Assembly (NCBI GenBank): GCA_028689145.1
Contig: JAQTWT010000011.1
Span: 1 to 64,000, forward strand
Length of the DNA: 64,000 bases
Reading direction: 5' to 3'
Source of the DNA: Gallionella sp.
GTDB lineage: Bacteria > Pseudomonadota > Gammaproteobacteria > Burkholderiales > Gallionellaceae
The translations under genes and the position numbers were made by a program. The notes below the pieces were generated by a model. The model made no database searches, had not been told where the DNA came from, and was given only the letters and a program-made list of their open reading frames with translations. Shown piece after piece: positions 1 to 15,638 of this stretch; the first letter of the stretch is position 1, and every line of letters starts with the position of its first letter.

Positions 1-527
1 TGCTCACTGGTGCCGTCGTGCTCACCGGAGCAGTGGTGCTCACCGGAGCAGTGGTGCTCACTGGAGCAGTGGTGCTCACTGGAGCAGTGGTGCTCACTGG
101 TGCAGTGGTGCTCACTGGTGCAGTAGCGCTCACTGGTGCAGTAGCGCTCACTGGTGCAGTAGCGCTCACTGGTGCAGTAGCGCTCACTGGTGCAGTCGTG
201 CTCACCGGAGCAGTGGTACTCACCGGAGCAGTGGTACTCACTGGAGCAGTGGTACTCACTGGAGCAGTGGTGCTCACTGGAGCCGTGGTGCTGACCGGGG
301 CCGTAGTGCTCACTGGTGCAGTAGTGCTCACTGGTGCTGTGGTGCTGACTGGAGCCGTTGTGCTGACCGGAGCGGTGGTGCTGACCGGAGCGGTGGTGCT
401 GACCGGAGCGGTGGTGCTGACCGGAGCGGTGGTGCTGACCGGAGCGGTGGTGCTGACCGGAGCCGTAGTGCTGACTGGTGCGGTGGTGCTCACTGGAGCA
501 GTCGTGCTGACTGGTGCCGTTGTAGTT
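1..527 (-). repeat. 18-bp tandem repeat array, about 29 visible copies, encoding (TTAPVS)n on the minus strand
   Basis: Plus strand reads ctcactggtgcagtggtg-type 18-mers in an uninterrupted array. The minus-strand frame of the CDS reads T-T-A-P-V-S. Neighbouring units share variants (gcgctcactggtgcagta block, gctgaccggagcggtggt block). Confidence 0.95.
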
Positions 528-1123
528 GTCGGTGCTGCAGTTTTTTCTGTCGCAGGTGTCACCACGGCCTCAGGTGTCACCGCTGCCTCAGCAGTCACTG
601 CAGCCTGATCACCCTGCTCCACAAAATCGGCAGATGCTGCTGCACCACCAGATGTTGCACCGCCGCCGATAGGCGTTTCAACGTCTGGCGCTTGTTGGCT
701 TGGTGTTGCATCTCTTGCAATGGTTGGATTGTCAACATCCACTTCGGCTTGGGGAAGCGTCTGATCAACAAGAGGAACGGGAATTTGCTGTCCGTCGCTG
801 CTGTGAGCATCCATGACAGGCACTGCATTTCCGGTCGAGACATCACGACTCTTTACACTCAAAGCCTCGTCGCGAAGCGTACCCTCATCAACACGAGCGC
901 GATCACGCGCATCGTCTTTCTTTATGTCGGATTGGATATTCTCGTTGCCGGCACTGTCAACCCGCGTCTGCGTTTCGGTTGCATTTTCAGCCTTGCCAAT
1001 ATTCTCTTCGTCCTGATCCTGACTAAGCACCGTCATTTCGTCAAACGCAACGGCTTCCTGATCGCCCGCTGCATTCACGTCGGCCGGTTGGTTTTGAGTG
1101 TTGTTTTCGTCGCTTGTTGCCAT
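1..1123 (-). CDS. N-terminal part of a large acidic T1SS-type secreted/adhesin-like protein with a TTAPVS repeat array (partial, continues beyond the left edge)
   Basis: Manual minus-strand translation from ATG at 1123 (SD-like AAGGGG upstream): MATSDENNTQNQPADVNAAGDQEAVAFDEMTVLSQDQDEENIGKAENATETQ...TEKTAAPTTTTAPVSTTAPVS..., open to position 1 with no stop. Acidic, no Sec signal, downstream of HlyD and ABC exporter genes. Absent from the ORF track because it has no stop inside the window. Confidence 0.85.
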   Translation of the reverse strand, partial: MATSDENNTQNQPADVNAAGDQEAVAFDEMTVLSQDQDEENIGKAENATETQTRVDSAGNENIQSDIKKDDARDRARVDEGTLRDEALSVKSRDVSTGNAVPVMDAHSSDGQQIPVPLVDQTLPQAEVDVDNPTIARDATPSQQAPDVETPIGGGATSGGAAASADFVEQGDQAAVTAEAAVTPEAVVTPATEKTAAPTTTTAPVSTTAPVSTTAPVSTTAPVSTTAPVSTTAPVSTTAPVSTTAPVSTTAPVSTTAPVSTTAPVSTTAPVSTTAPVSTTAPVSTTAPVSTTAPVSTTAPVSTTAPVSTTAPVSATAPVSATAPVSATAPVSATAPVSTTAPVSTTAPVSTTAPVSTTAPVSTTAPVSTTAPVS

Positions 1124-1391: not shown

Positions 1392-1418
1392 GAAAGGGCA
1401 CGATAATCGTGCCCTTTC
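1392..1418 (-). terminator. Perfect 12-bp stem / 3-nt loop hairpin downstream of HlyD
   Basis: gaaagggcacga-taa-tcgtgccctttc, 30 bp after the HlyD stop (minus strand), followed by a T-rich stretch on that strand. Confidence 0.75.
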
Positions 1419-1447: not shown

Positions 1448-2833
1448 TTACCGCTCATGGAACGACATCGACACCACGTCAATTAGCGGTTTAATCAAAT
1501 ATGCCAGCAGGGTTTTCTCTCCAGTGAGAATCTCGGCTTCCACGCTCATGCCGGGTTGCAGGAGATTGCGCCCCGGCACATCGCCGACATAGGGATTGTC
1601 CAACTCGACAACACCCTGATAATACGGCGTTTTATCTTCCCCCACGATACTGGATGCGCTCACCCGTTTCAGGCGGCCTTTGACAAAGCCGAATCTGGAG
1701 TAATCATAACTCGTTACCCGCAGATTGACCGGCTGACCGACTCTGACAAAACCGATATCGCGTGGCGTGATACGCACCTCAGCCTCGAATACAGCATTAT
1801 TGGATACAATCTGCATGAGCAATGCCCCAGGTTGGATAACCTGACCAACGTTTTGTACTCGCATATCCAGAACAAACCCACGGATGGGCGCGCGCACTTC
1901 AAGACGGTCAACGCGGGCCTGCAGACGCTGCAGCGTCTCTTCCACCTCGGCCATCTCAGCCCGCACGTTTCCCAGTTCGGCCAAGGCATCGCGCCGCGAT
2001 TGATTCAGGGAATCAATGCGGCGGCTTTGAATCTCCGACAGCTCCTGCTTAACCACACCAATTTCTGCCGTCAAACGTGCCGTTTCGCCCAAAGCCGTTG
2101 ACTTTGCACGCCGCGTCTCCAGCAGCACGGTGCGGTTTATCAACTGACGGGCAGCCAGATTCTCGCGCATTGTGGCAAGCTCGCCGGTCATGGCTTGCTG
2201 CTCTCTGGCCACAGATAACGCTATTTCCAGTTGGCGGATACGCTGCTTGCGCTGGTCAATTTGGCTGTCCAATATCGACAGCATCGAGTCCTGTGCCGCC
2301 AGCTGCGTGGAGTATATTTCCTGCTGGTTGGAAACCATGCCCGGCTGTTCTATTCCGAGCGCGATAAAGTCGGGTTGCTTGTCTTCGGTAAACGCTTTCA
2401 GCCGTTCCTCGCGCAGCCGCAGCGAATCGAGGCGCGCTTTCATTTGCCCGTAATCGGCGTTGGCCTGCGTACCCTCGATGCGCAGCAATACCGAGCCCTG
2501 CTCGACCAGCTTGCGCTCTTCGGCCACGATTTCCGACACCACTCCTCCATCCAGATGCTGCACCACTTTGACGCTGCCGGAAGGGATGACTTCGCCCGGC
2601 GCGCGCGCGACTTCCTTCATGCGTGTCAACGCCGCCCATAGCAGGAAAATTACCACCAATGCCACAACCAGATACATGATCGGCCGGACAAAGGCCGGAA
2701 CCAGCTCTTCCTCGATATGAATGCTCTCGGAAAGCAGACTGCGTTCCCTGCTACCCATCGGTATTTGGCCCGTGGGTTCGGGCTCGTGAGGCACCTCTTT
2801 TTTCTTGAACAGCAGTCTATTCTTGAAAAACAT
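1448..2833 (-). CDS. HlyD-family type I secretion periplasmic adaptor (membrane fusion protein)
   Basis: Single N-terminal TM, APGEVIPSGSVKVVQHLDGGVVSEI biotinyl-lipoyl-like motif, long coiled coil, C-terminal GEDKTPYYQGVVELD...LQPGMSVEAEILTGEKTLLAYLIKPL. Confidence 0.93.
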   Translation of the reverse strand: MFFKNRLLFKKKEVPHEPEPTGQIPMGSRERSLLSESIHIEEELVPAFVRPIMYLVVALVVIFLLWAALTRMKEVARAPGEVIPSGSVKVVQHLDGGVVSEIVAEERKLVEQGSVLLRIEGTQANADYGQMKARLDSLRLREERLKAFTEDKQPDFIALGIEQPGMVSNQQEIYSTQLAAQDSMLSILDSQIDQRKQRIRQLEIALSVAREQQAMTGELATMRENLAARQLINRTVLLETRRAKSTALGETARLTAEIGVVKQELSEIQSRRIDSLNQSRRDALAELGNVRAEMAEVEETLQRLQARVDRLEVRAPIRGFVLDMRVQNVGQVIQPGALLMQIVSNNAVFEAEVRITPRDIGFVRVGQPVNLRVTSYDYSRFGFVKGRLKRVSASSIVGEDKTPYYQGVVELDNPYVGDVPGRNLLQPGMSVEAEILTGEKTLLAYLIKPLIDVVSMSFHER

Positions 2834-5800
2834 TTAGGTTAGCTCCGACATAATTTTGTCTTTGATCTTTTCAAAAGAATCCATGGCAACAACGCTGCCG
2901 CGGTGCATCAGGATAACACTGTCGGCAGCGCGCATGTGTGCAGGGCGGTGAGTGACCATAATAACTGTAGAGCGCCCGCGCAACCAAGCGATACAACGCT
3001 CCAGCGCCTCGTCACCGCTCCGGTCCATCCCGGTGCCGGGTTCGTCGAGCAAAACGATGTCGGCCGGCTTGAGCATGGCACGCGCCAGCGAAAACCGCTG
3101 GCGAAAACCATGCGGCTGTTGCGACGAGCGGCTACTGGAAATACGGGTATTAAATCCCTGCGGAAGCGCCGCAATATCTTCGGCAAGCCCGGCCATCCCC
3201 ACAGCCCAATTCATCTCCGCATCCGATGCCGTCGGGTTGATCAGGCGCAGATTTTGCGCCACCGTACCGTAATACAATTCGCATTCCTGCGGCATATAAC
3301 TGATCTTGGCTCGCAGATCATCGGCGGTAAGCTGGCGTATATCCACATTATTGATGCGTATCGTTCCGGCTTGCGGAACATAAATGCGCTCCAATAGTTT
3401 GAGCAGGGTGGATTTGCCCGAGCCGTTACCGCCGACAATGGCAATAACCTGCCGCGGTGTCACGGAAAACGACACCCCCAGCAGAACCGGATCGGCATCG
3501 TTGGCATAGCGAAACGAGACCCGCGCAAAACTGAGCGAACCTCCCGAACCGGGGCTGATGGTTTGCACTACACCGGTATCCGATTCACCGCGGATACGCA
3601 TCAGATTTTCAACCTGACGGATACCGGAACGGATATGCACCACCGAGGTGGCCGCTAGGAATATGTTCTGGATCGGGCCGGTAACGCGCCACAGGATCAT
3701 CATGGTTGCCATCATGGTACCGCCGCTGATAGTACCCTGTATCGTAAGGTAAGCAGACAGCGCCAATGCCATCAGGCCGGTAGCCGAGCCAAGTATCTGC
3801 GCCATGCTATTAACGCGCGCATGCAGCTGGTTATTTTTAAAGTTGGCCATGACCGATTTGCCGCTCAATTCCCGGAACCGGCTTACCCACGACTGATCCG
3901 CACCCACCGCGCGAATGGAATGCATATCGGTCAAAGCTTCGTTCAAAAACTCCCAGCGTGCCGAGGCCAATAATCCGGATTTCGCCACCGATATTTCGCT
4001 GGATTTTCGCGTCAACAACCACAGCAGCGCAAACGACAGTACCGATGCCAGAATCACCAGCAACACCCATGGATTGATCACTGCAATCGCTACCAATAAC
4101 ACCAGCGTCGAGGGTAATTCAAACACCAGCAATGAAGCCGGGCCCAGGAAAAAATCACGCAAACTTTCCAGATTTTTAAACCGTCCCACCTGATTGCTGA
4201 CCGTAGCACCGTCGGTAGAAGAAGTCGGCAGATTAATGATGCGGTTAAACAGGGTGTTTCCCAGAATATATTCGAAGCGGCCGCCGACAAAAGCCATGAT
4301 CTGGCTTTTTAGATTGCGCAACAAACCGTCTGCGGTAATTGCGATAACCACCCCGATCATCAGAAAAGCGCCCATCACGATATCGCCGGACGGCAACACC
4401 AAATCGTAGATAGCCCGCACGAATAACGGCGCGGCCATGGCCAGCAACGCGCCTGCTATCGTCAGGATAAACGCCAGAAAAATATGATTGCGAAAACGCA
4501 ACAATAACGCCCCGATCCAGCTGGTTTCCTGACGGCGCGATTTGGCCACAACCTCCGCTTTCTGAAACAGATAGATTTCTCCCATATCGGCGGTAGGCTG
4601 TATTTCAGTTTCGGCACGCAAGTTACTGTCGAATATTTTTACATTTCCATTGGGCAACCGTTCCAAAACAATCATTGCCGGCTTGCCGAAAGGAGCAAAC
4701 AGGCAGGGCATCAGACGCGAGTCCAAACGCGCCAGATGACCGTTCAGATGCTTGGGGAAAAATTCCAGATTGGCCATGACCGAACACAGCACGGTAATAT
4801 CCATGCGCTTCACCAAATGCGGCATGGCATCGGCCAATTCGCGCGGCTGCCCCTCCCATCCAACCGCATGCAACAGCGGCAGCAGGCTTACCGACAGATC
4901 GGATTCCTCGTCAAACTGGCGGCGGATAACAGCGGCAAGATCCACGACCGATTCGGGACGTGCCGACAAATTGGTCACGTCTGTAGAAGTAGATGCCGCG
5001 ACAGCGATGTCGGAACGGGTCTCGATGACTCCTTCATGCAAGCGTCCATCGAGCAGCGAATAGGTTTTATCGGCAAGATTGATCAGCGAAGGACGGTGCG
5101 TCACCAGCACCACGCTGCATTTACCCTTCTGCTCCGCCAGATAATCGCGCAGCAGATTATCCAGACGCATATCCAGAGCGATATTGGCCTCGTCGAACAG
5201 AATAACACTGGGCTTGCGCACCAAGGCTCTGATGATGGTAATAATCTGGCGCAGACCTGCCGGCAGGGTATCGGCCACACCATTTCCGACATTGGTTTCA
5301 TAGCCCAACTTCATGCCTGCCACAATTTTATCCAAACCCAGTTTGCTTGCGAGGCCCAGCGCTTCCTCGTTCAAACTGGCATCGAACATGGTCATGTTTT
5401 CAAGGATATTGCCGGACACAATGGTGCCGGTTTGCGGCAACATCGCAATTTCCTTGTGCAGACTGCGCGTGGCAAATCTGTCCAGCGGCTCTCCATCCAC
5501 CAAAACCTGTCCCGAGTCGGGGGTGATCAAACCGTTCATCAACGACAACAGGCTGGTTTTACCGCTTCCGCTGGCCCCCAGAATAGCAACGAACTGACCG
5601 GCTTCAAGATTAAAAGACAGATTGGAAAACAACTCGCCGCGTTCATTGTTATTTTGCGGAGCCCCGCCGTAAAGCGCGCTCTTTCCCAGGGATTTAACGG
5701 CCATGGAATCGGCACCTTTAAACTTCAGGGTAATATTGCGCAGCTCCAGCGCTTTTGTAACAGGCGGCATAAGCGGTTTGCCCTCATCGTGTTCATAGGG

Positions 5801-6832
5801 CATGGCGAACACCTGATTAAGCCTGTCCTGCGCCGCGATAAAAGACTGGTAGCGCATCCATACCGACAGGCCGCGGCGCAACGGTTGCAGAGCGCGGACC
5901 GAAAGCATCATGCACGCGGCCAGACCGCCGGGGGTCATTTTTCCGCTGATCACAATCCACGAACTGGCAAAAACCACCGCCACAATCATGACCTGCGAAA
6001 ATAACGTGCCTATATTCGACGCCAATGCGTTGCCGCGTATCAGCGCCTCGCCCAGCCCGGAATTAGTTTCCTGCAACCGTTCATAGCGCCGCAGCATCAA
6101 CGATTCCATCGTCAGCGTCTTCACCGAATATATACCGGCCAATACTTCGGTCAAAAACCCCAGACGGCGGTCATCCTGAATGTTGCGTTTTTGAACCTGA
6201 TCGCGCATCCAGTTACCGAAGTAATAAATCAGGTAAGAAAACAGCAGCAGCAGAGCAACCGGCACAAGGAACAGCCACCCGCCGATGATGTAAATCAGCA
6301 GCGGATAGAGTGCCACGAAAGGCAGATCGAATAACACCAGTAGTGCCTGGCCCGAATAAAATTCGGCCACTTTGGTGGTAGCCAGTATCCTTTCTTCATG
6401 GATGCCCGGCTCCTCCTTTTGATAACGCTGCAACGGAACATGCATCAGCCGTTCGAGCGCGGCAACGCTGGTGTTATGTTCGAAGCGCGCGCCCAACCAG
6501 CTGGTAACCCGCCCGTTGACGGCACGTAAAATCTCTTCCAAGAATAACGCGACGACGACCCCGATCACCAGAAATGCCAGGGTCTCCAGAGATTGATTGG
6601 ACACCACACGGTCAAGAATCTGCAGAATTGCAAGAGGAAGCGCCAACGCCAGAACGTTGGATAATAAAGACGAGACCCCAAGCCACGGCAATACCCGGCG
6701 CAAATCGGGCGAACGAAATAACTGGCGCAAAGCACTTTCCCCCGGCTCCCCCCCGGTCGGCCTGCCATTGCCATGCGTATTCCGGTCAAGTGTCGAACGC
6801 GCTTTTTCCATGCTATCCAAAAATCCAGTCAA
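2834..6832 (-). CDS. Single-chain double type I secretion ABC transporter: TMD-NBD, C39-like domain, TMD-NBD (1332 aa)
   Basis: Two Walker A motifs (GASGSGKTS, GGNGSGKST), two Walker B (VILFDEA, IVLLDEP), two H-loops (VTHRP), two six-TM blocks, and a middle domain (SLLPLLHAVGWEGQPRELADAMPHL...) resembling the C39-like domain of LapB/HlyB-type exporters. Confidence 0.9.
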   Translation of the reverse strand: MTGFLDSMEKARSTLDRNTHGNGRPTGGEPGESALRQLFRSPDLRRVLPWLGVSSLLSNVLALALPLAILQILDRVVSNQSLETLAFLVIGVVVALFLEEILRAVNGRVTSWLGARFEHNTSVAALERLMHVPLQRYQKEEPGIHEERILATTKVAEFYSGQALLVLFDLPFVALYPLLIYIIGGWLFLVPVALLLLFSYLIYYFGNWMRDQVQKRNIQDDRRLGFLTEVLAGIYSVKTLTMESLMLRRYERLQETNSGLGEALIRGNALASNIGTLFSQVMIVAVVFASSWIVISGKMTPGGLAACMMLSVRALQPLRRGLSVWMRYQSFIAAQDRLNQVFAMPYEHDEGKPLMPPVTKALELRNITLKFKGADSMAVKSLGKSALYGGAPQNNNERGELFSNLSFNLEAGQFVAILGASGSGKTSLLSLMNGLITPDSGQVLVDGEPLDRFATRSLHKEIAMLPQTGTIVSGNILENMTMFDASLNEEALGLASKLGLDKIVAGMKLGYETNVGNGVADTLPAGLRQIITIIRALVRKPSVILFDEANIALDMRLDNLLRDYLAEQKGKCSVVLVTHRPSLINLADKTYSLLDGRLHEGVIETRSDIAVAASTSTDVTNLSARPESVVDLAAVIRRQFDEESDLSVSLLPLLHAVGWEGQPRELADAMPHLVKRMDITVLCSVMANLEFFPKHLNGHLARLDSRLMPCLFAPFGKPAMIVLERLPNGNVKIFDSNLRAETEIQPTADMGEIYLFQKAEVVAKSRRQETSWIGALLLRFRNHIFLAFILTIAGALLAMAAPLFVRAIYDLVLPSGDIVMGAFLMIGVVIAITADGLLRNLKSQIMAFVGGRFEYILGNTLFNRIINLPTSSTDGATVSNQVGRFKNLESLRDFFLGPASLLVFELPSTLVLLVAIAVINPWVLLVILASVLSFALLWLLTRKSSEISVAKSGLLASARWEFLNEALTDMHSIRAVGADQSWVSRFRELSGKSVMANFKNNQLHARVNSMAQILGSATGLMALALSAYLTIQGTISGGTMMATMMILWRVTGPIQNIFLAATSVVHIRSGIRQVENLMRIRGESDTGVVQTISPGSGGSLSFARVSFRYANDADPVLLGVSFSVTPRQVIAIVGGNGSGKSTLLKLLERIYVPQAGTIRINNVDIRQLTADDLRAKISYMPQECELYYGTVAQNLRLINPTASDAEMNWAVGMAGLAEDIAALPQGFNTRISSSRSSQQPHGFRQRFSLARAMLKPADIVLLDEPGTGMDRSGDEALERCIAWLRGRSTVIMVTHRPAHMRAADSVILMHRGSVVAMDSFEKIKDKIMSELT

Positions 6833-6922: not shown

Positions 6923-8578
6923 TCATTCCATAGCCAGATTGCCTATTGCCCGACGCAGCAACGGATGGGTGAACGAAAGCCATCCATCCGCACTGTATGC
7001 CAATACCCCCGCCGCTATCGCATGCTCCACCTGGTTGCACAGTGCCGCGGCATCCTCGCCCAGATTCGCCGCCGCCTCAGCCAGACTTGTGCCAACGGCA
7101 TTTTTGGCCACTTCTCGCAACAAATGATGATCCAGATGCAAACTGTCAAGACGGGCAGTGATCGCCACCCGCAACGGCAGAGCCAATTGCTCCGCATCAT
7201 GATGCCGCGCCAGCCCGACTGCGAACAACGGCACTCCGGCTGCCGCACTGGCGATCCGCTGAACCTTGCTCGCACGTCCATCGATTGCACCTTTACCCAA
7301 TGCATCGCGCACCAACACCTGAACAGAGTGCGCGGACAAACGCCGCAGACTGATCATCCCGAATGCGTTCGTTCCGGTTTGACGGGCGGCATTTTCGCGT
7401 ATCCCTCTGCGCCCCGAAAAAATCACCAATTTCCCTTTGCCAACAGCCTCCGCCCCGGCTGCCGACAGCAATATTTGCTGGTCTTGGGTTAACAAATGAA
7501 AGTCGTCGACAACGACAAGATCCGGAAAACGAACCGGCTCGGCGCGTAGCGATACCGCTGCCTGCTCCACAGAACATTCCACCCCCTTTACAGTATCGTA
7601 CAGGCAGTTGCCCAGCACTGACGGTAAACTGCGGCAGAACGACACATCACCCTCATGCTTGAGACAAAGTTTTGCAATGGCATCGCAAAGGCGGGATTTG
7701 CCCATGCCCATCTCGCCTTCTACAACAAACAGCTTGCCGTGACCTTTCGCCGCTTCAGTCAAAGCGGCATAAAGCTGGCCCAATTCATCATCGCGTCCGA
7801 CCAGATGATAAGCGCGCCGCGATCCTGTCCAGTGCAGGTTTTTCAGCTCCGGCAATCGCATCGTCGGTGACACCTGCTGCATTCCCCCTATGCCAAACAA
7901 TTCAATCAAATCGAGCGCGGTTGGGTCGAATGCAAACTGACCCGGCTGAACATCGTTCAGCAACTCGCGTGCGGTTGCGATAGCAACACTGGCAATTGCC
8001 TCGCCAGTCCAGCCGCCAAATCGTTTCATGCTCGCAAATGCCACTCCCGCCGTCATACAACCGCGCAATGTCCCGGCGATCCCGGCATCCATCGCTTGTA
8101 GGTCGTCATATACCGCGCGTGCAGTTTGTACGGCAATTGCCAAATCGTATTCGGTGACCCGCTGGATACCGAAAATAACATCCCCGGCATTGCCGTTGCG
8201 CGCCAGAAAAACAGCATCGTTGGCCGATGCCATCGCCGCCAGGCTGCCATACATAAGTTTTGTTGCCAGCTGGCTTGCGTCTTCCGGCAGTGCAATACTC
8301 AGCACGACACAGGGGCGGCACTCCAGCAAATCGGCCATCGGCAGAACAGATTCGCGGCTTTCCTGCTCATGAAGCATCTCCATGCCATGTGATACCGCCA
8401 TCGCCCGGTTGCTAACATTTAACTTTTTGAAAATCGCGACCAGATGCTGCTTGACTGTGCCGAGGCCGATACCCAACTCCTGCGCAACCTCCTTATTCAC
8501 CTTTCCCGCCTGCAACAGCTTGAGTATCTGGTGCTGGCGCTGGCTGAGTTCGGGCTGATTCCTTGTCTTCCCGTTCAT
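6923..8578 (-). CDS. Multidomain regulator: N-terminal LuxR-type HTH, degenerate nucleotidyl-cyclase-like domain, AAA/STAND-like ATPase
   Basis: LSQRQHQILKLLQAGKVNKEVAQELGIGLGTVKQHLVAIFKKLNVSNRAMAV (LuxR/GerE HTH), then VVLSIAL...GDVIFGIQ...GGWTGEAIASVAIATARELL (cyclase fold-like), then GEMGMGKSR (Walker A) and LVVVDDF (Walker B). Confidence 0.8.
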   Translation of the reverse strand: MNGKTRNQPELSQRQHQILKLLQAGKVNKEVAQELGIGLGTVKQHLVAIFKKLNVSNRAMAVSHGMEMLHEQESRESVLPMADLLECRPCVVLSIALPEDASQLATKLMYGSLAAMASANDAVFLARNGNAGDVIFGIQRVTEYDLAIAVQTARAVYDDLQAMDAGIAGTLRGCMTAGVAFASMKRFGGWTGEAIASVAIATARELLNDVQPGQFAFDPTALDLIELFGIGGMQQVSPTMRLPELKNLHWTGSRRAYHLVGRDDELGQLYAALTEAAKGHGKLFVVEGEMGMGKSRLCDAIAKLCLKHEGDVSFCRSLPSVLGNCLYDTVKGVECSVEQAAVSLRAEPVRFPDLVVVDDFHLLTQDQQILLSAAGAEAVGKGKLVIFSGRRGIRENAARQTGTNAFGMISLRRLSAHSVQVLVRDALGKGAIDGRASKVQRIASAAAGVPLFAVGLARHHDAEQLALPLRVAITARLDSLHLDHHLLREVAKNAVGTSLAEAAANLGEDAAALCNQVEHAIAAGVLAYSADGWLSFTHPLLRRAIGNLAME

Positions 8579-11500
8579 GGCGCACTCCCTGTTGCATCTT
8601 GGCTGGAATTACTTTTGGAAGACTCCGCTTTGATTGATTCCTGCTCTTCCAGTATCTTCCATTCGCTGCCGCGATCTTTGCGGATCAAAATCAATTGCTT
8701 CCGCGAAGTCTTTTTATAACCGCCAACTTCAAGCGTTTCCACAAAATATGCCGCCGCTCTCAGAGCACCGCGTGGTTCAATTTTGAGATTTTCCGCACGC
8801 ACCCTGATTGAGGCAGCCTCGCCAATCCGGCTGCCGCGTTTATTTTCCCATGCTGCACGCTCTTCCCCGCCTGCCGGCTGAAACTTGATGTCATAGTGAG
8901 ACAGATAACCCGCCACATTCTTTGCCGACCAATCATTTAACCAGCGTGCAACCAGCAATTCCGGGGAACCTGCCGGAATTTCTGCAGATTGTTTGGCTTC
9001 CGCTTCCGCCGCAGCTTTGGCCGACTGCTCCGCTTTTATGCGCGCGGCCTCAATCTTTGCCGCACGCTTGGCCTCTTCAGCGGCCTGTTTCTCCGCAGCT
9101 GCTTTGACTTTCTGCTCGGCCTTCAGCTTGGCTGCTTCGGCTTCCGCTTCCTGTTTGGCTTTCAGCTTTGCCGCTTTGGCCTCTGCGTCCAACTTGGCTT
9201 GCTCTGCCGCTTTAGCTTGCTGCTCCGCTCTCACCCGAGCAGCCTCGGCTTTGGCTTCTTCCTTTGCCTTGAGCTTGGCAGCCCTGGCTTCCGCTGCCAA
9301 TTTTGCTTTCTCTTCTGCTGCCGCTTTGGCAACTGCCTCACGTTGCGGGCGTGCGGCTTCCGCTCCCGCAGCAGCCATGGCCTGCTGCCCCGGTTTGACA
9401 CGTGCAGCTTCTGCCAGTGCCGCGCGTTTGACCTCATCGGCTGCTTGTTTCTCCGCTGCTGAATTGGCTTTCTGCTCGGCCTTCAGCTTGGCTGCTCCGG
9501 CTTCCGCTTCCTGTTTGGCTTTCAGCTTTGCCGCTTTGGCCTCTGCGTCCAGCCTGGCTTGCTCTGCTGCTTTCGCTTGCCGTTCAGCTTTCACGCGTGC
9601 CGCTTCGGCTTTAGCTTCTTCCTGTGCCTTGAGCTTGGCAACCCTGGCTTCCGCTGCCAATTTCGCTTTCTCTTCTGCTGCCGCTTTGGCAGCTGCCTCA
9701 CGTTGCGGGCGTGCAGCTTCCGCTTCCGCAGCAGCCATGGCCTGCTGTTCCACTTTGACACGTGCAGCTTCTGCCAGTGCCGCGCGTTTGGCCTCATCGG
9801 CTGCTTGTTTCTCCGCTGCTGATTTGGCTTTCTGCTCGGCCTTCAGCTTGGCTGCTTCGACTTCCGCTTCCTGTTTGGCTTTCAGCTTTGCCGCTTTGGC
9901 CTCTGCGTCCAACTTGGCTTGCTCTGCCGCTTTAGCTTGCTGCTCCGCTCTCACCCGAGCAGCTTCGGCTTTGGCTTCTGCCTTTGCCTTGAGCTTGGCG
10001 GCCCTAGCTTCCGCTGCCAATTTTGCTTTCTCTTCTGCTGCCTCATGAGCTTCAAACTTTGCACGGGTTTCTTCTTTCTCTTCCAAAATCTTCCATCCGC
10101 CATCCGGACCGCTGCGAATCAACACCAATTGTTTCCATGAGTTCTCTTCACGCCCATCAACTTCTCTTGACTCTACAAAACGGGCAATCGCCATCAGCTT
10201 GCCCTGCTGCACAATCTTCAGCTTTTCCGCGCGCGCTTTGACTGGGGCAGCTTCGACAATTTGCTTGCGGCGTTGCGCTTCCCATGACGCACGATTAGTC
10301 CCGTCTTCCGGGCGGAAAGCGATGTCATAATGCGACAAATAGCTCGTCACATTTATTCCCGACCAATCCTGCAACCAGCGTTCAACCAATATTTCCGGTG
10401 AACTCATCGGAATTTGGACAACTTCGGCTTCTGCCGCTTGATTGGTTTCCGGCACTGCCGTTTTTTCCGCTGGCAGTTCTGCTTTTTGCCCGGACTTTAC
10501 CGATGGCATCTCAACTCCGGTGGCAACTCCTGTATCCCTCTTATCCTCGACGTTATTAGCCGGTACAGGCAAACTATTTTTTCCAGTCAGCGCTTGCGAC
10601 GATACGACACCGCAACGCTGCTGCTCTGCACGCAACACGGCACAAAACTCTTCGGCTATCTGCTTCTCGGAAAATTGTGCAATAAATAACTGATACTGCG
10701 GGGGCTGCGCATCGCCTGCATCACCCGTCCCGTGTTGACGGCGCGGAAGTATCGTCCGGCCTTCCATCTGTTTTGGAAAACGGGCACGCAAGTCACGCCA
10801 TACGGCGGTAACCGCGCGTCGATCATGCACATCGGACATTTCCACCAGCCAAAACCGCTGATTGGACCAGTCCACCCCGTCGAATTTTTCCTGATTCGGC
10901 AAGGTTGCAGCGGTTGCGGGTGCGGCTTCCTGTTCCGCAATTATGCGCGGAGCTTCTGTATTCGCTGCACGTTTGGCCTCTTCCGCTACTTGTTTCTCCG
11001 CAGCTGCTTTGGCTTTCTGCTCGGCCTTCAGTTTGGCTGCCCCGGCTTCCTGTTTGGCTTTCAGCTTTGCCGCTTTGGCCTCTGCGTCCAGCCTGGCTTG
11101 CTCTGCTGCTTTCGCTTGCCGTTCAGCTTTCACGCGTGCCGCTTCGGCTTTAGCTTCTTCCTGTGCCTTGAGCTTGGCAACCCTGGCTTCCGCTGCCAAT
11201 TTCGCTTTCTCTTCTGCTGCCGCTTTGGCAGCTGCCTCACGTTGCGGGCGTGCAGCTTCCGCTTCTGCAGCCGCCTTAACTTCCTGTTCCGCTTTGACAC
11301 GTGCTGCTTCTGCCTGTGCCGCACGTTTAACCTCGTCAGCAGCTTGTTTCTCCGCTGCTGCTTTGGCTTTCTGTTCTGCTTTCAGCTTCGCTGCAGCGAC
11401 TTCAGCTTCCCGTCTGGCTTTCAGCTTCGCCGCTTTAAGCTCCGCGTCCACCCTGGCATTCTCAGCCGCTTGGCCTTGCTGCTCTGCTTTCAACCGCGCC

Positions 11501-12783
11501 ACTTCGGCTTTGGCTTGTTCCAGTGTATTGAGTTTCGCCGCTTTGGCTTCTGCAGCCGCACGAGCTTGCTGTTCCGCGACTACGCGCGCTACTTCAGCCT
11601 TCTCCGCCTGCCGGGCTTCTTCAAACGCTTGTTTTTCTGCATTCGCTCTAGCCAGCTTCTCGGCCTTCAACCGATCAACATCGGTTTTCAACCGCAAAAT
11701 TTCCGCTTCAGTTTCCTGCCGGACTTTCAACTTTGCGTCCTTGGCTATAGATTCCAGATACGTTCTTTCTGCTTCAGCATGCGCGTCATGTTCGACTTTC
11801 AGGCGAGCGGCTTCCGCATCGGCTTTGGCTTTCTGCTCAACCTGCAGCCTGGCCGCCACGGCTTCCGCTTCCCGCTTGGCTTTCAACTTCGCCGCTTTAG
11901 CCTCCGCGTCCTGCCTGGCTTTTTCCGCTGCCTTGGCTTGCAGTTCAGCTTTCACACGTACCGCTTCGGCTTTGGCTTCTTCCTGCACTTTAAGCTTGGC
12001 GGCTTTGGCCTCCTCCGCCAGCCTCGCTTTCTCTTCTGCAGCGGCAGCCTTGGCATCCTGCTCAGCTTTGACACGCGCGGCTTCAACTTGGGCAGCCTGT
12101 TTAGCTTCTTCTGCAGCCTGTTTTTCCGCATCATCCTGCGCGGTTCTCGCGCTAATAACCCCGGCTGCTTTATTAGCGTCTGCTCTGGCCTGCCTCTCGG
12201 CCTTCAACCGCGCCACATCAGCTTTTAAACGCAAAATTTCGGCTTCAGTTTCCCGCTGTACTTTCAACTTTGCGGCCTTGGCTATGAATTCCAGATAGGC
12301 TCTTTCTTCCTCTGCCACCTGCGCTTCACGCCCCGACTCCTTGGCTACAGCCTTTTCCGGCTGACTTGGCGCTATATTGTTTTCAGCTTTCGGCACCATA
12401 CCGGCCTCTGCCACAACCAACCGGTAGCCGTTCACACCGGATGACCCTGCTGTCTGCGAAGCGCCTGTGCGCGGGGTGGAATCGAACGTCAAAGATTTTT
12501 CGTGTTGCCGGTAAAGTTCGAGCGCATACACATTGCCGCTACCCGACAACAACAAAAAACACAGCGCGCCAAACGCCGCGTTGCGCAAACACAAACTCTG
12601 CCGATACAGGTGTTCCATATATACCCACGCCTCCAATCCCGCGCATGCGATCAGCCAATACCCCTGCAAACTTCTGTTCCAACGCGTGCAGATGCGTATT
12701 GGCAAGTGGAATGTAAAATCGCCCCCCGATAACCGCCAATCCGGCGACCTCCATTTTGTGTCTTCATTGGAATATTGCTTCAT
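8575..12783 (-). CDS. Large TolA-like Ala/Lys/Glu coiled-coil protein with one SPOR domain and two NTF2/Cds6-like domains
   Basis: 1402 aa with repetitive KAAEEAKRAAQAEAARVKAEQ coils. SPOR-like FWLVEMSDVHDRRAVTAVWRDLRARFPK...YQLFIAQFSEKQIAEEFCAVLRAEQQRCGVV. Two copies of SPE(I/L)LV.RWL.DWS..NV..YLSHYDI.F.P...WKILEE. Possible alternative start at 12618 (MEHLYRQSLCLRNAAFGALCFLLLSGSGNVYA). Confidence 0.8.
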   Translation of the reverse strand: MKQYSNEDTKWRSPDWRLSGGDFTFHLPIRICTRWNRSLQGYWLIACAGLEAWVYMEHLYRQSLCLRNAAFGALCFLLLSGSGNVYALELYRQHEKSLTFDSTPRTGASQTAGSSGVNGYRLVVAEAGMVPKAENNIAPSQPEKAVAKESGREAQVAEEERAYLEFIAKAAKLKVQRETEAEILRLKADVARLKAERQARADANKAAGVISARTAQDDAEKQAAEEAKQAAQVEAARVKAEQDAKAAAAEEKARLAEEAKAAKLKVQEEAKAEAVRVKAELQAKAAEKARQDAEAKAAKLKAKREAEAVAARLQVEQKAKADAEAARLKVEHDAHAEAERTYLESIAKDAKLKVRQETEAEILRLKTDVDRLKAEKLARANAEKQAFEEARQAEKAEVARVVAEQQARAAAEAKAAKLNTLEQAKAEVARLKAEQQGQAAENARVDAELKAAKLKARREAEVAAAKLKAEQKAKAAAEKQAADEVKRAAQAEAARVKAEQEVKAAAEAEAARPQREAAAKAAAEEKAKLAAEARVAKLKAQEEAKAEAARVKAERQAKAAEQARLDAEAKAAKLKAKQEAGAAKLKAEQKAKAAAEKQVAEEAKRAANTEAPRIIAEQEAAPATAATLPNQEKFDGVDWSNQRFWLVEMSDVHDRRAVTAVWRDLRARFPKQMEGRTILPRRQHGTGDAGDAQPPQYQLFIAQFSEKQIAEEFCAVLRAEQQRCGVVSSQALTGKNSLPVPANNVEDKRDTGVATGVEMPSVKSGQKAELPAEKTAVPETNQAAEAEVVQIPMSSPEILVERWLQDWSGINVTSYLSHYDIAFRPEDGTNRASWEAQRRKQIVEAAPVKARAEKLKIVQQGKLMAIARFVESREVDGREENSWKQLVLIRSGPDGGWKILEEKEETRAKFEAHEAAEEKAKLAAEARAAKLKAKAEAKAEAARVRAEQQAKAAEQAKLDAEAKAAKLKAKQEAEVEAAKLKAEQKAKSAAEKQAADEAKRAALAEAARVKVEQQAMAAAEAEAARPQREAAAKAAAEEKAKLAAEARVAKLKAQEEAKAEAARVKAERQAKAAEQARLDAEAKAAKLKAKQEAEAGAAKLKAEQKANSAAEKQAADEVKRAALAEAARVKPGQQAMAAAGAEAARPQREAVAKAAAEEKAKLAAEARAAKLKAKEEAKAEAARVRAEQQAKAAEQAKLDAEAKAAKLKAKQEAEAEAAKLKAEQKVKAAAEKQAAEEAKRAAKIEAARIKAEQSAKAAAEAEAKQSAEIPAGSPELLVARWLNDWSAKNVAGYLSHYDIKFQPAGGEERAAWENKRGSRIGEAASIRVRAENLKIEPRGALRAAAYFVETLEVGGYKKTSRKQLILIRKDRGSEWKILEEQESIKAESSKSNSSQDATGSAP
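9000..10050 (-). repeat. Three ~360-bp (120-aa) near-identical tandem units within the coiled-coil gene
   Basis: Lines 9121, 9481 and 9841 start with nearly the same sequence (cttcagcttggctgct(t/c)c(g)(g/a)cttccgcttcctgtttggct...), a 360-bp period. A further close copy lies at ~10980-11340. Confidence 0.88.
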
Positions 12784-15638
12784 GGCTTATGCCCGCCAAG
12801 TCCGGATTCAGGCATGGCTGCATTGGTCTCCGCCCCAACTCCTGCTTTTTCTTCCTCATCCAACAGTGCTTTTTGCTCCGCTTTCAAGCGCTCCAGTTCT
12901 GCTTCCACTGCCGCACGGGCTTCCCGCTCCGCTTTCTCGCGTGTCGCCTCAGCTTTGGCTGATTGCTCTGCCGCAGCATGTTGTTGCACGTGTGCCGCAT
13001 TTTTTTGTTCCGACTTTAATTGCGACGTTTCGGCTGTCAACCCGGCATTTTCTTCTTCGTCCAGCAGTGCTTTGTACTCTGCTTTTAAGCGCGCCAGTTC
13101 GGCTTCCGCTGCTTCTCTGGCTTCATATTCCGCTTTCGCGCGCGCGACACCGGCCTGCACTCGCCCCACTTCAGATGTTAATTTTTCCGGTGCATTGCTT
13201 ATCGCGACAGACGCTTCACCTGCCAGTCCAGCTTTTGCTTCCCCATCCAGCAGTGCCTGTTGCTCTGCTTTCAGACGTTCCAATTCAACTTCCGCAGCAG
13301 CCCTTGCTTCCCGTTCCGCTGCCACGCGCACAGCCTCTATTTTGGCAGCCAGACCAGCTGCTGCCTGCACTGCCTCAGGCTCAGCAGTTTTTTCAACAGG
13401 CATTTGCCCATCCTGCGCTGCTGCACCATCCGCATGATCCGATGGATTTCCGTCTTTATCATTCCTGCCAGAAACTTTCGCACCCGCCGTCGTGGTCGCA
13501 GTGATTGCTCCGCTAGCGGCGTTTGGCTGCAGATCAGATGCCGGAGGCACCACAAAGCCGTCTCTTCCCTCCAGCGATCGGGAAGAAACTGCTTCGCAAC
13601 GTTGCTGCCCGGCACGCAGTGTTATACAAAAATCTTCTGCTACTTTCTGATCGGGGAAGGTTGCGATAAATAACCGGTACCATGCAGCGCGCTCCTTCCC
13701 CGCCGCATTCACTTGCCCTTGCCGCTGCGGGAGCAGAGTTCGCCCGTCCATCAGTTGCTGCGAAAAGCGCGAGCGCAAGTCCCTCCAGGCGGGCAACACA
13801 GCACCCCGGTCATACACGCCGGAAAGCTCCACCAGCCAATGCACTTTTCCGTCGTTCAGCGTATTCCCCTCCCAGTCCACCGCTTTAGCTTCGTTAGCCT
13901 GCTCCCTGCTTCTGGCTTTATCATCTTCTCGTTTTTTGTACTTGCCAAATAATGTCGGAGCAACTTCCCCGACCGCGTTATCTGCCTTGTCTGCAATATT
14001 TCCTGTCCGGTTTTGCGCAGCACCCTCAACCCCCTGCTTTGCGCCAGACTCCGCAAAAACAGTGCCATAATCGGCCTCGTCTGCCAACGGCGCGGGACGC
14101 GCGCCGTCTCCCGGCATGACATCGCCGCCGGATACACCTCCGCCCAACGCGCTGAACAAATTGATCAGCCCGCGGTAGCGATCCATGCGTACACTGTACC
14201 AGTCATCCAGATTGCGCTGATAGGCGCGTTGCGCATCCAGCACAGCCAGATAATCAACCGCTCCGGCCATATAAGTTTCCTGGCTGTAATTCCATGCGCG
14301 CAGCGATGAATCAACGGCCACACCCTGCGCTTTCAGGCGCTTGCCGATAAAACTGATCGCGCTCAGCGAATCATCGACTTCGCGTACCGCGTCATAAATC
14401 ACGCGCATATAAGTTTCCAGCAACTCTTCATGCATAGCCTGCGCAAATTCCACTTCCTTGGATCGCTTGCCGCTGTCGAATATAGTTGCTGAAAGATTGG
14501 CAATCGTGCTCCAAAACAGTGCCTGCGGCGTGAACAACCCAGACATGTAGATACTACCGTAACCTATTTGCGCAGTCAGATCGAGCGGTGGCAGCACCCG
14601 CGCACGCGCAACGTCAATATCGGCATCAGCCGCCAACATCCTCGCCTCCACCGCACGCACGTCGGGTCTGCGCAACAACAATGCCGAGGGTACGCCGGGA
14701 AGCACCGGCAAAAATTTTACCGAGTTTAATCCATTACGCGAAAGCTTCAGCGCCACCGGTGCCGAGCCGGTCAACGCAGCCAAACGATTGAGTACGGTTT
14801 CACGCTGTTGTTCAAGTACCGGAAAGGTAGCTTTTACCGCAAAAACAGCCGCCTTCTGCTGCTCCATTTCCGTTATGGTTGCATCCCCCACAGCCAAACG
14901 TTCGCTTACCGAGACCAGCATCTCGCCCAGTGAATTCTCGGTCTCGCGCGCGACTTTCAAACGGTCATTGAGCGACAGGTATTCGATGTAAGCGGCAGCC
15001 ACATCGGCGGCCACTTTTCTCTGCATATCATCGCGCTGGTAGGTTGCCCGCAACAACTGCAACTCGGCGGACTCATACAACGATTCAGTTTCACCCCAAA
15101 TATCGGGACGCCAATCACCCTTGAGACTGATCTGATGGCTGGAGCGCGACTTGTTATTGCCCGTCGCACTACCTCTCCCGACACCAAATTCCGGATACTC
15201 GTTTTTAACCTGGGCCGGCAGCGTAACAACCGGAACCTTATCCGCTCCCGCCTGATCGAGCCGTGCTTTGCTTTGCGCGATACGCAATGCCGCAATCCGC
15301 AGATCCGGATTATTCGCCAGCGCGCGATCCATCAAACCGTTGAGTTCCTGGCTCCCCAACAGTCGCCACCACTCTGCCAGCGCAGCCGTCAATGGCGACG
15401 AAGCAGACAGTGCAGGGCGGGATACCGGTGAAGGCGAGGTGATATTTTTAGAATTGGCTATATCAACAACCGTTGGAGCGGCCGGATACTGCTTGGGAAG
15501 ATCAAGCGCGGGCACATTGTATTTATCGCGTTTTGCCGCACAGCCTGCCAACAGCAAAAAACATGACAGCATGAACGTGATGCCGCGCAAACACGACAAC
15601 CGATGATATTTCGGATAAGTCAATTTACTCACCGGCAC
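12780..15638 (-). CDS. NodT/TolC-type outer-membrane efflux lipoprotein fused to a C-terminal SPOR-like domain and coiled coil
   Basis: Lipobox LLLAGC; OMF features WWRLLGSQELNGLMDRALANNPDLRIAALRI, LLRRPDVRAVEARMLAADADIDVARA; then HWLVELSGVYDRGAVLPAWRDLRSRFSQ...WYRLFIATFPDQKVAEDFCITLRAGQQRCEAV (SPOR-like) and an Ala/Glu/Lys coiled coil. Confidence 0.88.
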   Translation of the reverse strand: MPVSKLTYPKYHRLSCLRGITFMLSCFLLLAGCAAKRDKYNVPALDLPKQYPAAPTVVDIANSKNITSPSPVSRPALSASSPLTAALAEWWRLLGSQELNGLMDRALANNPDLRIAALRIAQSKARLDQAGADKVPVVTLPAQVKNEYPEFGVGRGSATGNNKSRSSHQISLKGDWRPDIWGETESLYESAELQLLRATYQRDDMQRKVAADVAAAYIEYLSLNDRLKVARETENSLGEMLVSVSERLAVGDATITEMEQQKAAVFAVKATFPVLEQQRETVLNRLAALTGSAPVALKLSRNGLNSVKFLPVLPGVPSALLLRRPDVRAVEARMLAADADIDVARARVLPPLDLTAQIGYGSIYMSGLFTPQALFWSTIANLSATIFDSGKRSKEVEFAQAMHEELLETYMRVIYDAVREVDDSLSAISFIGKRLKAQGVAVDSSLRAWNYSQETYMAGAVDYLAVLDAQRAYQRNLDDWYSVRMDRYRGLINLFSALGGGVSGGDVMPGDGARPAPLADEADYGTVFAESGAKQGVEGAAQNRTGNIADKADNAVGEVAPTLFGKYKKREDDKARSREQANEAKAVDWEGNTLNDGKVHWLVELSGVYDRGAVLPAWRDLRSRFSQQLMDGRTLLPQRQGQVNAAGKERAAWYRLFIATFPDQKVAEDFCITLRAGQQRCEAVSSRSLEGRDGFVVPPASDLQPNAASGAITATTTAGAKVSGRNDKDGNPSDHADGAAAQDGQMPVEKTAEPEAVQAAAGLAAKIEAVRVAAEREARAAAEVELERLKAEQQALLDGEAKAGLAGEASVAISNAPEKLTSEVGRVQAGVARAKAEYEAREAAEAELARLKAEYKALLDEEENAGLTAETSQLKSEQKNAAHVQQHAAAEQSAKAEATREKAEREARAAVEAELERLKAEQKALLDEEEKAGVGAETNAAMPESGLGGHKP

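What the first reader, a model, noticed from the sequence alone, without database searches (positions are those of the whole stretch)
2834..6832. Single-chain double ABC exporter with degenerate signature motifs in both NBDs
One ORF contains TMD-NBD, a C39-like domain and another TMD-NBD. Both Walker A/B and H-loops look intact, but the LSGGQ positions read ADTLPAGLRQ and SQQPHGFRQR. T1SS ABC proteins are usually ~700-aa homodimers. A fused pseudo-heterodimer with the C39-like domain only before the second half suggests asymmetric function.
Basis: partly seen in the sequence, partly recalled or inferred. Interest (0 to 1): 0.65.

Follow-up and report, generated by a model that had tools for sequence, protein, structure and literature searches.

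The report
Fused asymmetric type I secretion exporter
A protein pump that bacteria normally build from two identical halves is here one long chain of two unlike halves, both with an altered ATP-sensing motif; it belongs to a widespread and apparently undescribed branch of these pumps, sitting beside large secreted surface proteins.

Summary
ORF 2834-6832 (-) is one intact 1332-aa chain, TMD-NBD-CLD-TMD-NBD. Both Walker A/B motifs, catalytic Glu and H-loops are intact; both signatures are non-canonical (LPAGLRQ, QPHGFRQR). It is no assembly error: 12 orthologs (57-85% identity) share the fusion and degeneracy, as does a homolog in a one-contig genome and, more distantly, two cultured Azospirillum strains. 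Of 54 pairs examined, the signature core SGG survives in 1 N-type and no C-type half. In a careful tree the fused forms lie on one side of a single branch (96/95), so one fusion suffices. The operon holds a LuxR regulator, outer-membrane factor, HlyD adaptor and an RTX-tailed repeat protein, the probable cargo. Most likely it is a T1SS exporter with two unequal ATP sites: C-half Walker A/B/Glu/His plus N-half LPxG signature hydrolyses; the other is degenerate. The only two-ABC T1SS found in the literature (RtxB/RtxE) appears different. Evidence is sequence-only; AlphaFold models were too poor to use.

The parts
2834..6832 (-). Fused double ABC exporter, 1332 aa (likely start ATG at 6811)
5843..6700 (-). 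TMD1 (residues ~45-330), N-type, directly at the N terminus without a C39-like domain
   Evidence: Pfam ABC_membrane 52-312; N-half matches the LssB model only from position 156
5018..5755 (-). NBD1 (residues ~360-605): Walker A GASGSGKT, Q467, D547/E548, H579
5246..5266 (-). Non-canonical signature of NBD1, LPAGLRQ (residues 523-529)
4538..4915 (-). C39-like domain (residues ~640-765), catalytic residues absent
   Evidence: C-half matches TIGR03375 from model position 3; alignments
3608..4510 (-). TMD2 (residues ~775-1075)
2858..3541 (-). NBD2 (residues ~1098-1325): Walker A GGNGSGKS, Q1182, D1263/E1264, H1295
3095..3118 (-). Non-canonical signature of NBD2, QPHGFRQR (residues 1239-1246)
1448..2833 (-). 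HlyD-family periplasmic adaptor, 461 aa
   Evidence: TIGR01843, 342.8 bits, over its cut-off; next to the ABC gene in the relatives
1392..1418 (-). Terminator-like hairpin (12 pairs) between hlyD and the cargo gene
   Evidence: consensus match only
1..1123 (-). N-terminal 374 aa of the probable cargo, a Thr/Pro repeat protein running off the contig edge; its likely C-terminal part is on contig C15, bases 2-2152 (RTX repeats and conserved tail)
6923..8578 (-). LuxR-type regulator with AAA domain, conserved upstream neighbour
8575..12783 (-). Ala/Glu/Lys-rich repeat protein with two Cds6_C (NTF2-like) domains
12780..15638 (-). NodT-type outer-membrane factor with a long C-terminal extension, the probable exit channel
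   Evidence: TIGR01845, 288.8 bits; conserved neighbour in the relatives

Best explanation
This is the inner-membrane ATPase of a type I secretion system, built as one chain from two unlike halves that in many relatives are still separate neighbouring genes. It works with the adjacent HlyD adaptor and NodT-type channel and most likely exports the adjacent RTX-tailed repeat protein. Its two composite ATP sites are unequal. The probable hydrolytic site is C-half Walker A/B, Glu1264 and His1295 facing the N-half signature LPxG. The other site (N-half Walker A/B facing the C-half signature) probably binds ATP with slow or no hydrolysis. The single, catalytically dead C39-like domain of the C-half receives the unfolded cargo. 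Shown: architecture, conservation, pairing, single fusion branch, operon. Inferred: cargo identity, which site hydrolyses, role of the C39-like domain.
For: Domain order. Conserved fusion and motifs in 12 orthologs. Unfused N-type/C-type pairs in the same order followed by hlyD. Separate N and C clades, with canonical single exporters outside. Fused rows on one side of one branch, 96/95, linker columns removed. Across 54 pairs: C-type keeps Walker A Lys 52/54, Glu 51/53, His 46/53; N-type His only 21/54; N-type signature keeps its second Gly 52/54, C-type 35/53. In G078/G123/G130 the N-half has lost catalytic Glu and His (and, in G078/G123, Walker A Lys) while the C-half keeps all three. Purifying selection, dN/dS about 0.13. 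Conserved operon and RTX cargo.
Against: In the window protein itself both NBDs look catalytically complete except for the signatures, so inequality of the sites is inferred from relatives. Four orthologs (L011, L046, L047, L048) have lost the H-loop His in both halves, which does not fit a simple one-good-site model. Cargo assignment rests on gene order and the RTX tail only.
Confidence: 0.72

Rival explanations
1. Two separate genes were joined by an assembly or sequencing error.
For: The window starts at a contig edge, and unfused pairs exist in relatives.
Against: Same fusion in 12 orthologs from independent assemblies, in G339 on a single contig and in two named Azospirillum plasmids. The linker region is alignable among orthologs.
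Confidence: 0.01
2. Both ATP sites work as in an ordinary symmetric exporter; the signature changes are neutral drift and the fusion is only packaging.
For: Walker A, Q-loop, Walker B, Glu and D-loop are intact in both halves of the window protein.
Against: The signature changes are conserved and half-specific over the whole family (Ser to Pro in 50/54 N-type), N-half catalytic residues are lost in several relatives, and H-loop loss is biased to the N-half.
Confidence: 0.15
3. A decaying exporter, or a regulatory protein that no longer hydrolyses ATP.
For: Both H-loop His lost in four orthologs; a distant Phaeobacter pair has lost Walker A Lys and the Walker B Asp in both NBDs.
Against: Intact reading frame, dN/dS about 0.13, conserved operon with adaptor, channel and cargo.
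Confidence: 0.08
4. It is the known two-ATPase T1SS (MARTX RtxB/RtxE type) in fused form.
For: RtxB and RtxE are both needed for MARTX secretion (PMC3034196).
Against: A Vibrio coralliilyticus pair with the ABC-HlyD-ABC order keeps LSGGQ in both genes and scores near-equally against the N- and C-type profiles, unlike family members. That it is RtxB/RtxE proper was not verified.
Confidence: 0.04

Closest known systems
T1SS ABC exporters of the LssB/LapB group (TIGR03375) and HlyB (TIGR01846)
   Same: TMD-NBD fold, C39-like domain in the C-half, HlyD partner, RTX-type cargo
   Different: Known ones are ~700-aa single proteins with LSGGQ; here two unlike halves in one chain, one C39-like domain, both signatures non-canonical; each half alone falls below the curated cut-off
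PrtD group (TIGR01842)
   Same: The N-half lacks a C39-like domain, as PrtD does
   Different: The N-half scores better against the LssB model (331 bits) than PrtD (259 bits) and is fused to a half that has the domain
MARTX RtxB/RtxE four-component T1SS
   Same: Two different ABC proteins needed for one T1SS (PMC3034196)
   Different: Separate genes; the Vibrio pair examined flanks the adaptor gene, keeps canonical motifs in both and scores alike against our two profiles
Asymmetric ABC exporters with one degenerate site (TAP, TM287/288, MRP1, Pdr5; PMC7756269)
   Same: Unequal halves, altered signature, Glu or His losses on one side
   Different: There the review places the signature change in one NBD; here the SGG core is lost in both halves, and the cargo is a large protein through a T1SS
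Eukaryotic full-length ABCB transporters (P-glycoprotein, plant ABCB19)
   Same: Two TMD-NBD halves in one chain; best sequence matches in the PDB
   Different: Both signatures canonical in the ABCB alignments shown, no C39-like domain, different cargo

Membership tests
Type I secretion system (ABC + HlyD + outer-membrane factor) | ABC gene linked to a TIGR01843 adaptor | tested here: met
   HlyD 342.8 bits vs cut-off 208.65; adjacent in the relatives
Type I secretion system (ABC + HlyD + outer-membrane factor) | Outer-membrane factor in the operon | tested here: met
   TIGR01845, 288.8 bits vs cut-off 210.05; conserved neighbour
Type I secretion system (ABC + HlyD + outer-membrane factor) | Linked RTX-type cargo | tested here: met
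   HemolysinCabind in cargo of L043 and L045; RTX-like tail of the own cargo on contig C15
Type I secretion system (ABC + HlyD + outer-membrane factor) | ATP-dependent secretion of the cargo | not testable with these tools
   needs an experiment
LssB/LapB group TIGR03375 | Curated score cut-off (693.1) met by one exporter unit | tested here: not met
   C-half 376, N-half 331 bits; the full chain passes only by adding both
LssB/LapB group TIGR03375 | C39-like domain plus TMD plus NBD in one unit | tested here: met
   C-half covers model positions 3-692
Canonical T1SS ABC exporter | LSGGQ signature | tested here: not met
   SGG core in 1/54 N-type and 0/54 C-type halves; single exporters mostly LSGGQ
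MARTX RtxB/RtxE pair | Membership of the same clades as RtxB and RtxE | tested here: inconclusive
   A Vibrio ABC-HlyD-ABC operon is canonical and scores like single exporters, but its identity as RtxB/RtxE was not verified
ABC exporters with one degenerate site | One site consensus, one degenerate | tested here: inconclusive
   Asymmetric residue loss across the family, but both sites have altered signatures in the window protein

The most novel reading that the evidence does not exclude
The N-type/C-type exporters are an undescribed, ancient branch of T1SS in which the canonical signature was abandoned on both sides and ATP use drifted down to none in some lineages (Phaeobacter pairs lacking Walker A Lys and Walker B Asp in both NBDs yet under purifying selection), so that large adhesins are exported with little or no hydrolysis by the translocator itself.
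Probability: 0.2. Interest if true: 0.87.

Novelty: new variant of a known kind. Interest (0 to 1): 0.62.

Why it matters
T1SS exporters are usually treated as symmetric homodimers, so it is hard to ask what each ATP site or each C39-like domain does. A natural, covalently fixed asymmetric T1SS exporter lets the two sites and the single C39-like domain be mutated separately, bears on whether ATP binding or hydrolysis drives protein export, and points to an unstudied set of surface proteins in Gallionellaceae, Azospirillum and others. Automatic annotation hides it: in Azospirillum it is named only 'ATP-binding cassette domain-containing protein'.

Tried and rejected
Assembly error: rejected. 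RtxB/RtxE type: not supported. AlphaFold: the full chain exceeds 1200 aa; two partial models from 12 sequences gave pLDDT 52 and 56 and were not used for fold searches. LapG-type release of the cargo: a LapG-like Peptidase_C93 exists elsewhere in the genome, but no conserved cleavage motif was seen by eye across the cargo N termini; not pursued. Exact end overlap of contigs C18 and C15 in the repeat array was not found, only a shared 120-base stretch, so the link rests on the shared array and tail homology. A NpdA S-layer paper found by keyword concerns a type II secreted protein and is unrelated.

Full report
The ORF. 2834-6832 (-) is a 1332-aa uninterrupted frame; its TTG start is probably superseded by ATG at 6811, because Met8 is conserved. 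Pfam finds two ABC_membrane and two ABC_tran domains. The C-half aligns to the LssB model TIGR03375 from position 3 (C39-like domain included); the N-half's best match to it starts at 156. The whole-protein scores that would name it LssB or PrtD (693.4 and 534.2 bits) arise from adding the halves; singly they fail the cut-offs. Walker A, Q-loop, Walker B, Glu and H-loop are intact in both halves; signatures are LPAGLRQ and QPHGFRQR.

Real and conserved. The window lies at the start of contig C18 of a 2.74-Mb genome. Twelve orthologs, mostly Gallionellaceae including Nitrotoga, with two Comamonadaceae MAGs and one MAG labelled Geobacter, share the fusion at 57-85% identity. Comparison with L045 gives dN 0.09 and dS 0.67. 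Both Walker A Lys, Glu548 and Glu1264 are invariant in these 13. The signature Ser is never retained in the N-half; in the C-half it is Pro in most, Ala in one, and Ser in two that lack the following Gly. Four orthologs (L011, L046, L047, L048) have lost H-loop His in both halves.

A wider family. Profile searches of 399 genomes of the order, 369 of the class and 399 of the phylum (drawn samples, unnamed) recovered more fused forms and many unfused neighbours: a gene without the C39-like domain (mostly ~575-655 aa, stop to stop) followed by one with it (mostly ~715-790 aa) and hlyD. Named members are Azospirillum lipoferum 4B (WP_244442643.1, 1378 aa) and Azospirillum sp. B510 (WP_148219661.1, 1363 aa), both fused, beside HlyD and a giant Ig-like protein (RTX and cadherin repeats shown for 4B). 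Distribution is patchy: 10 of 150 sampled genomes of the window's family, its own included, gave matches over 1600 bits.

History. On 47 half-exporters the N-type and C-type halves form separate clades (SH-aLRT 98 and 92), a strongly diverged pair in G040 joins each side accordingly (99), and single exporters with LSGGQ fall outside (a quick tree with long branches). On 51 concatenated pairs with linker columns removed, the 34 fused rows lie on one side of one branch (ultrafast bootstrap 96, SH-aLRT 95). One fusion event is sufficient; the root is not inferred, so one fission is not formally excluded.

Asymmetry. Over 54 pairs: N-type signature Ser is Pro in 50, Ala in 3, Ser in 1, and its second Gly is kept in 52; C-type Ser is Pro in 30 and Ser in 17, with the second Gly kept in 35 of 53. 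The intact SGG core occurs in 1 N-type and 0 C-type. Catalytic Glu: 48/54 N, 51/53 C. H-loop His: 21/54 N, 46/53 C. In G078/G123 the N-half has Walker A Lys to Arg, Glu to Asp, His to Gln; in the unfused G130 pair the N-type has Glu to Ala and no His, while the C-halves there keep Lys, Glu and His. In ABC exporters each site pairs Walker A/B of one NBD with the signature of the other (PMC7756269). Hence the inferred assignment: hydrolytic site = C-half Walker A/B/Glu/His + N-half LPxG; degenerate site = N-half Walker A/B + C-half signature.

Neighbours and cargo. In the Gallionellaceae-type loci the order is NodT-type channel, optional Cds6-type protein, LuxR-AAA regulator, ABC, HlyD, then a repeat protein. 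Repeat proteins share an N terminus (FDEMTVLS ... GNENIQSD), Thr/Pro, TD, AD or SD repeats, and mostly a tail ending (S/D)NID(K/R)IEW; L043 and L045 carry RTX repeats. In this genome the gene breaks at the contig edge in an 18-bp repeat array; a matching array, an SD repeat, RTX-like repeats and the tail (75% identical to L045) are at contig C15:2-2152. The two contigs share a 120-base stretch of the array but no clean end overlap.

Known systems. RtxB and RtxE are both required for MARTX secretion (PMC3034196). A Vibrio coralliilyticus operon with order ABC-HlyD-ABC has LSGGQ, Walker and H-loop motifs intact in both genes (the first seen only in its last 310 residues) and its complete ABC scores near-equally against the N- and C-type profiles (305 and 333 bits), unlike family members. 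Nine literature searches found no fused or obligately asymmetric T1SS exporter of this kind; the library is open-access only, so absence is weak evidence.

An extreme. Phaeobacter plasmid pairs align to this family (27% identity) but lack Walker A Lys and Walker B Asp in both NBDs, while dN/dS between two species' copies is about 0.10-0.13.

Limits.

Noticed in passing
L152:7878-11668 (Phaeobacter gallaeciensis pP128_a, RS18295/RS18300); L155:5878-9668: A two-gene T1SS ABC pair in which both NBDs have lost Walker A Lys and Walker B Asp, yet the genes are intact and under purifying selection between species.
   Followed up: partly
L052:7330-11108 (G040): Unfused pair whose first member has no recognisable Walker A and Asp-His in place of the Walker B Asp-Glu, followed by HlyD and a very long adhesin-like ORF.
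   Followed up: partly
L160:2228-9359 (contig C15 of the same genome): Beyond the cargo tail lie a large ORF and, on the other strand, a long protein that reads like CapA, kinase and Mur-ligase parts; Mur-ligase- and kinase-like genes also follow the cargo gene in L069. Possibly a linked surface polymer or protein modification.
   Followed up: no
window 8575-12783 and 12780-15638: The channel protein and its neighbour both carry long Ala/Glu/Lys-rich stretches and a similar segment (VDW...WLVE(M/L)S.V.DR.AV..WRDLR.RF), suggesting a shared extra domain.
   Followed up: no
G000:C23:4048-4410 (L154): LapG-like Peptidase_C93 elsewhere in the genome, suggesting a separate LapA-type adhesin system.
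   Followed up: no
L040: MAG labelled Geobacter sp. UBA6151 carries a copy nested among Gallionellaceae sequences; probably a misbinned contig or recent transfer.
   Followed up: no
L094, L095, L096: Pairs that are in frame with only a single stop codon between the N-type and C-type reading frames, showing how easily a fusion could arise.
   Followed up: partly
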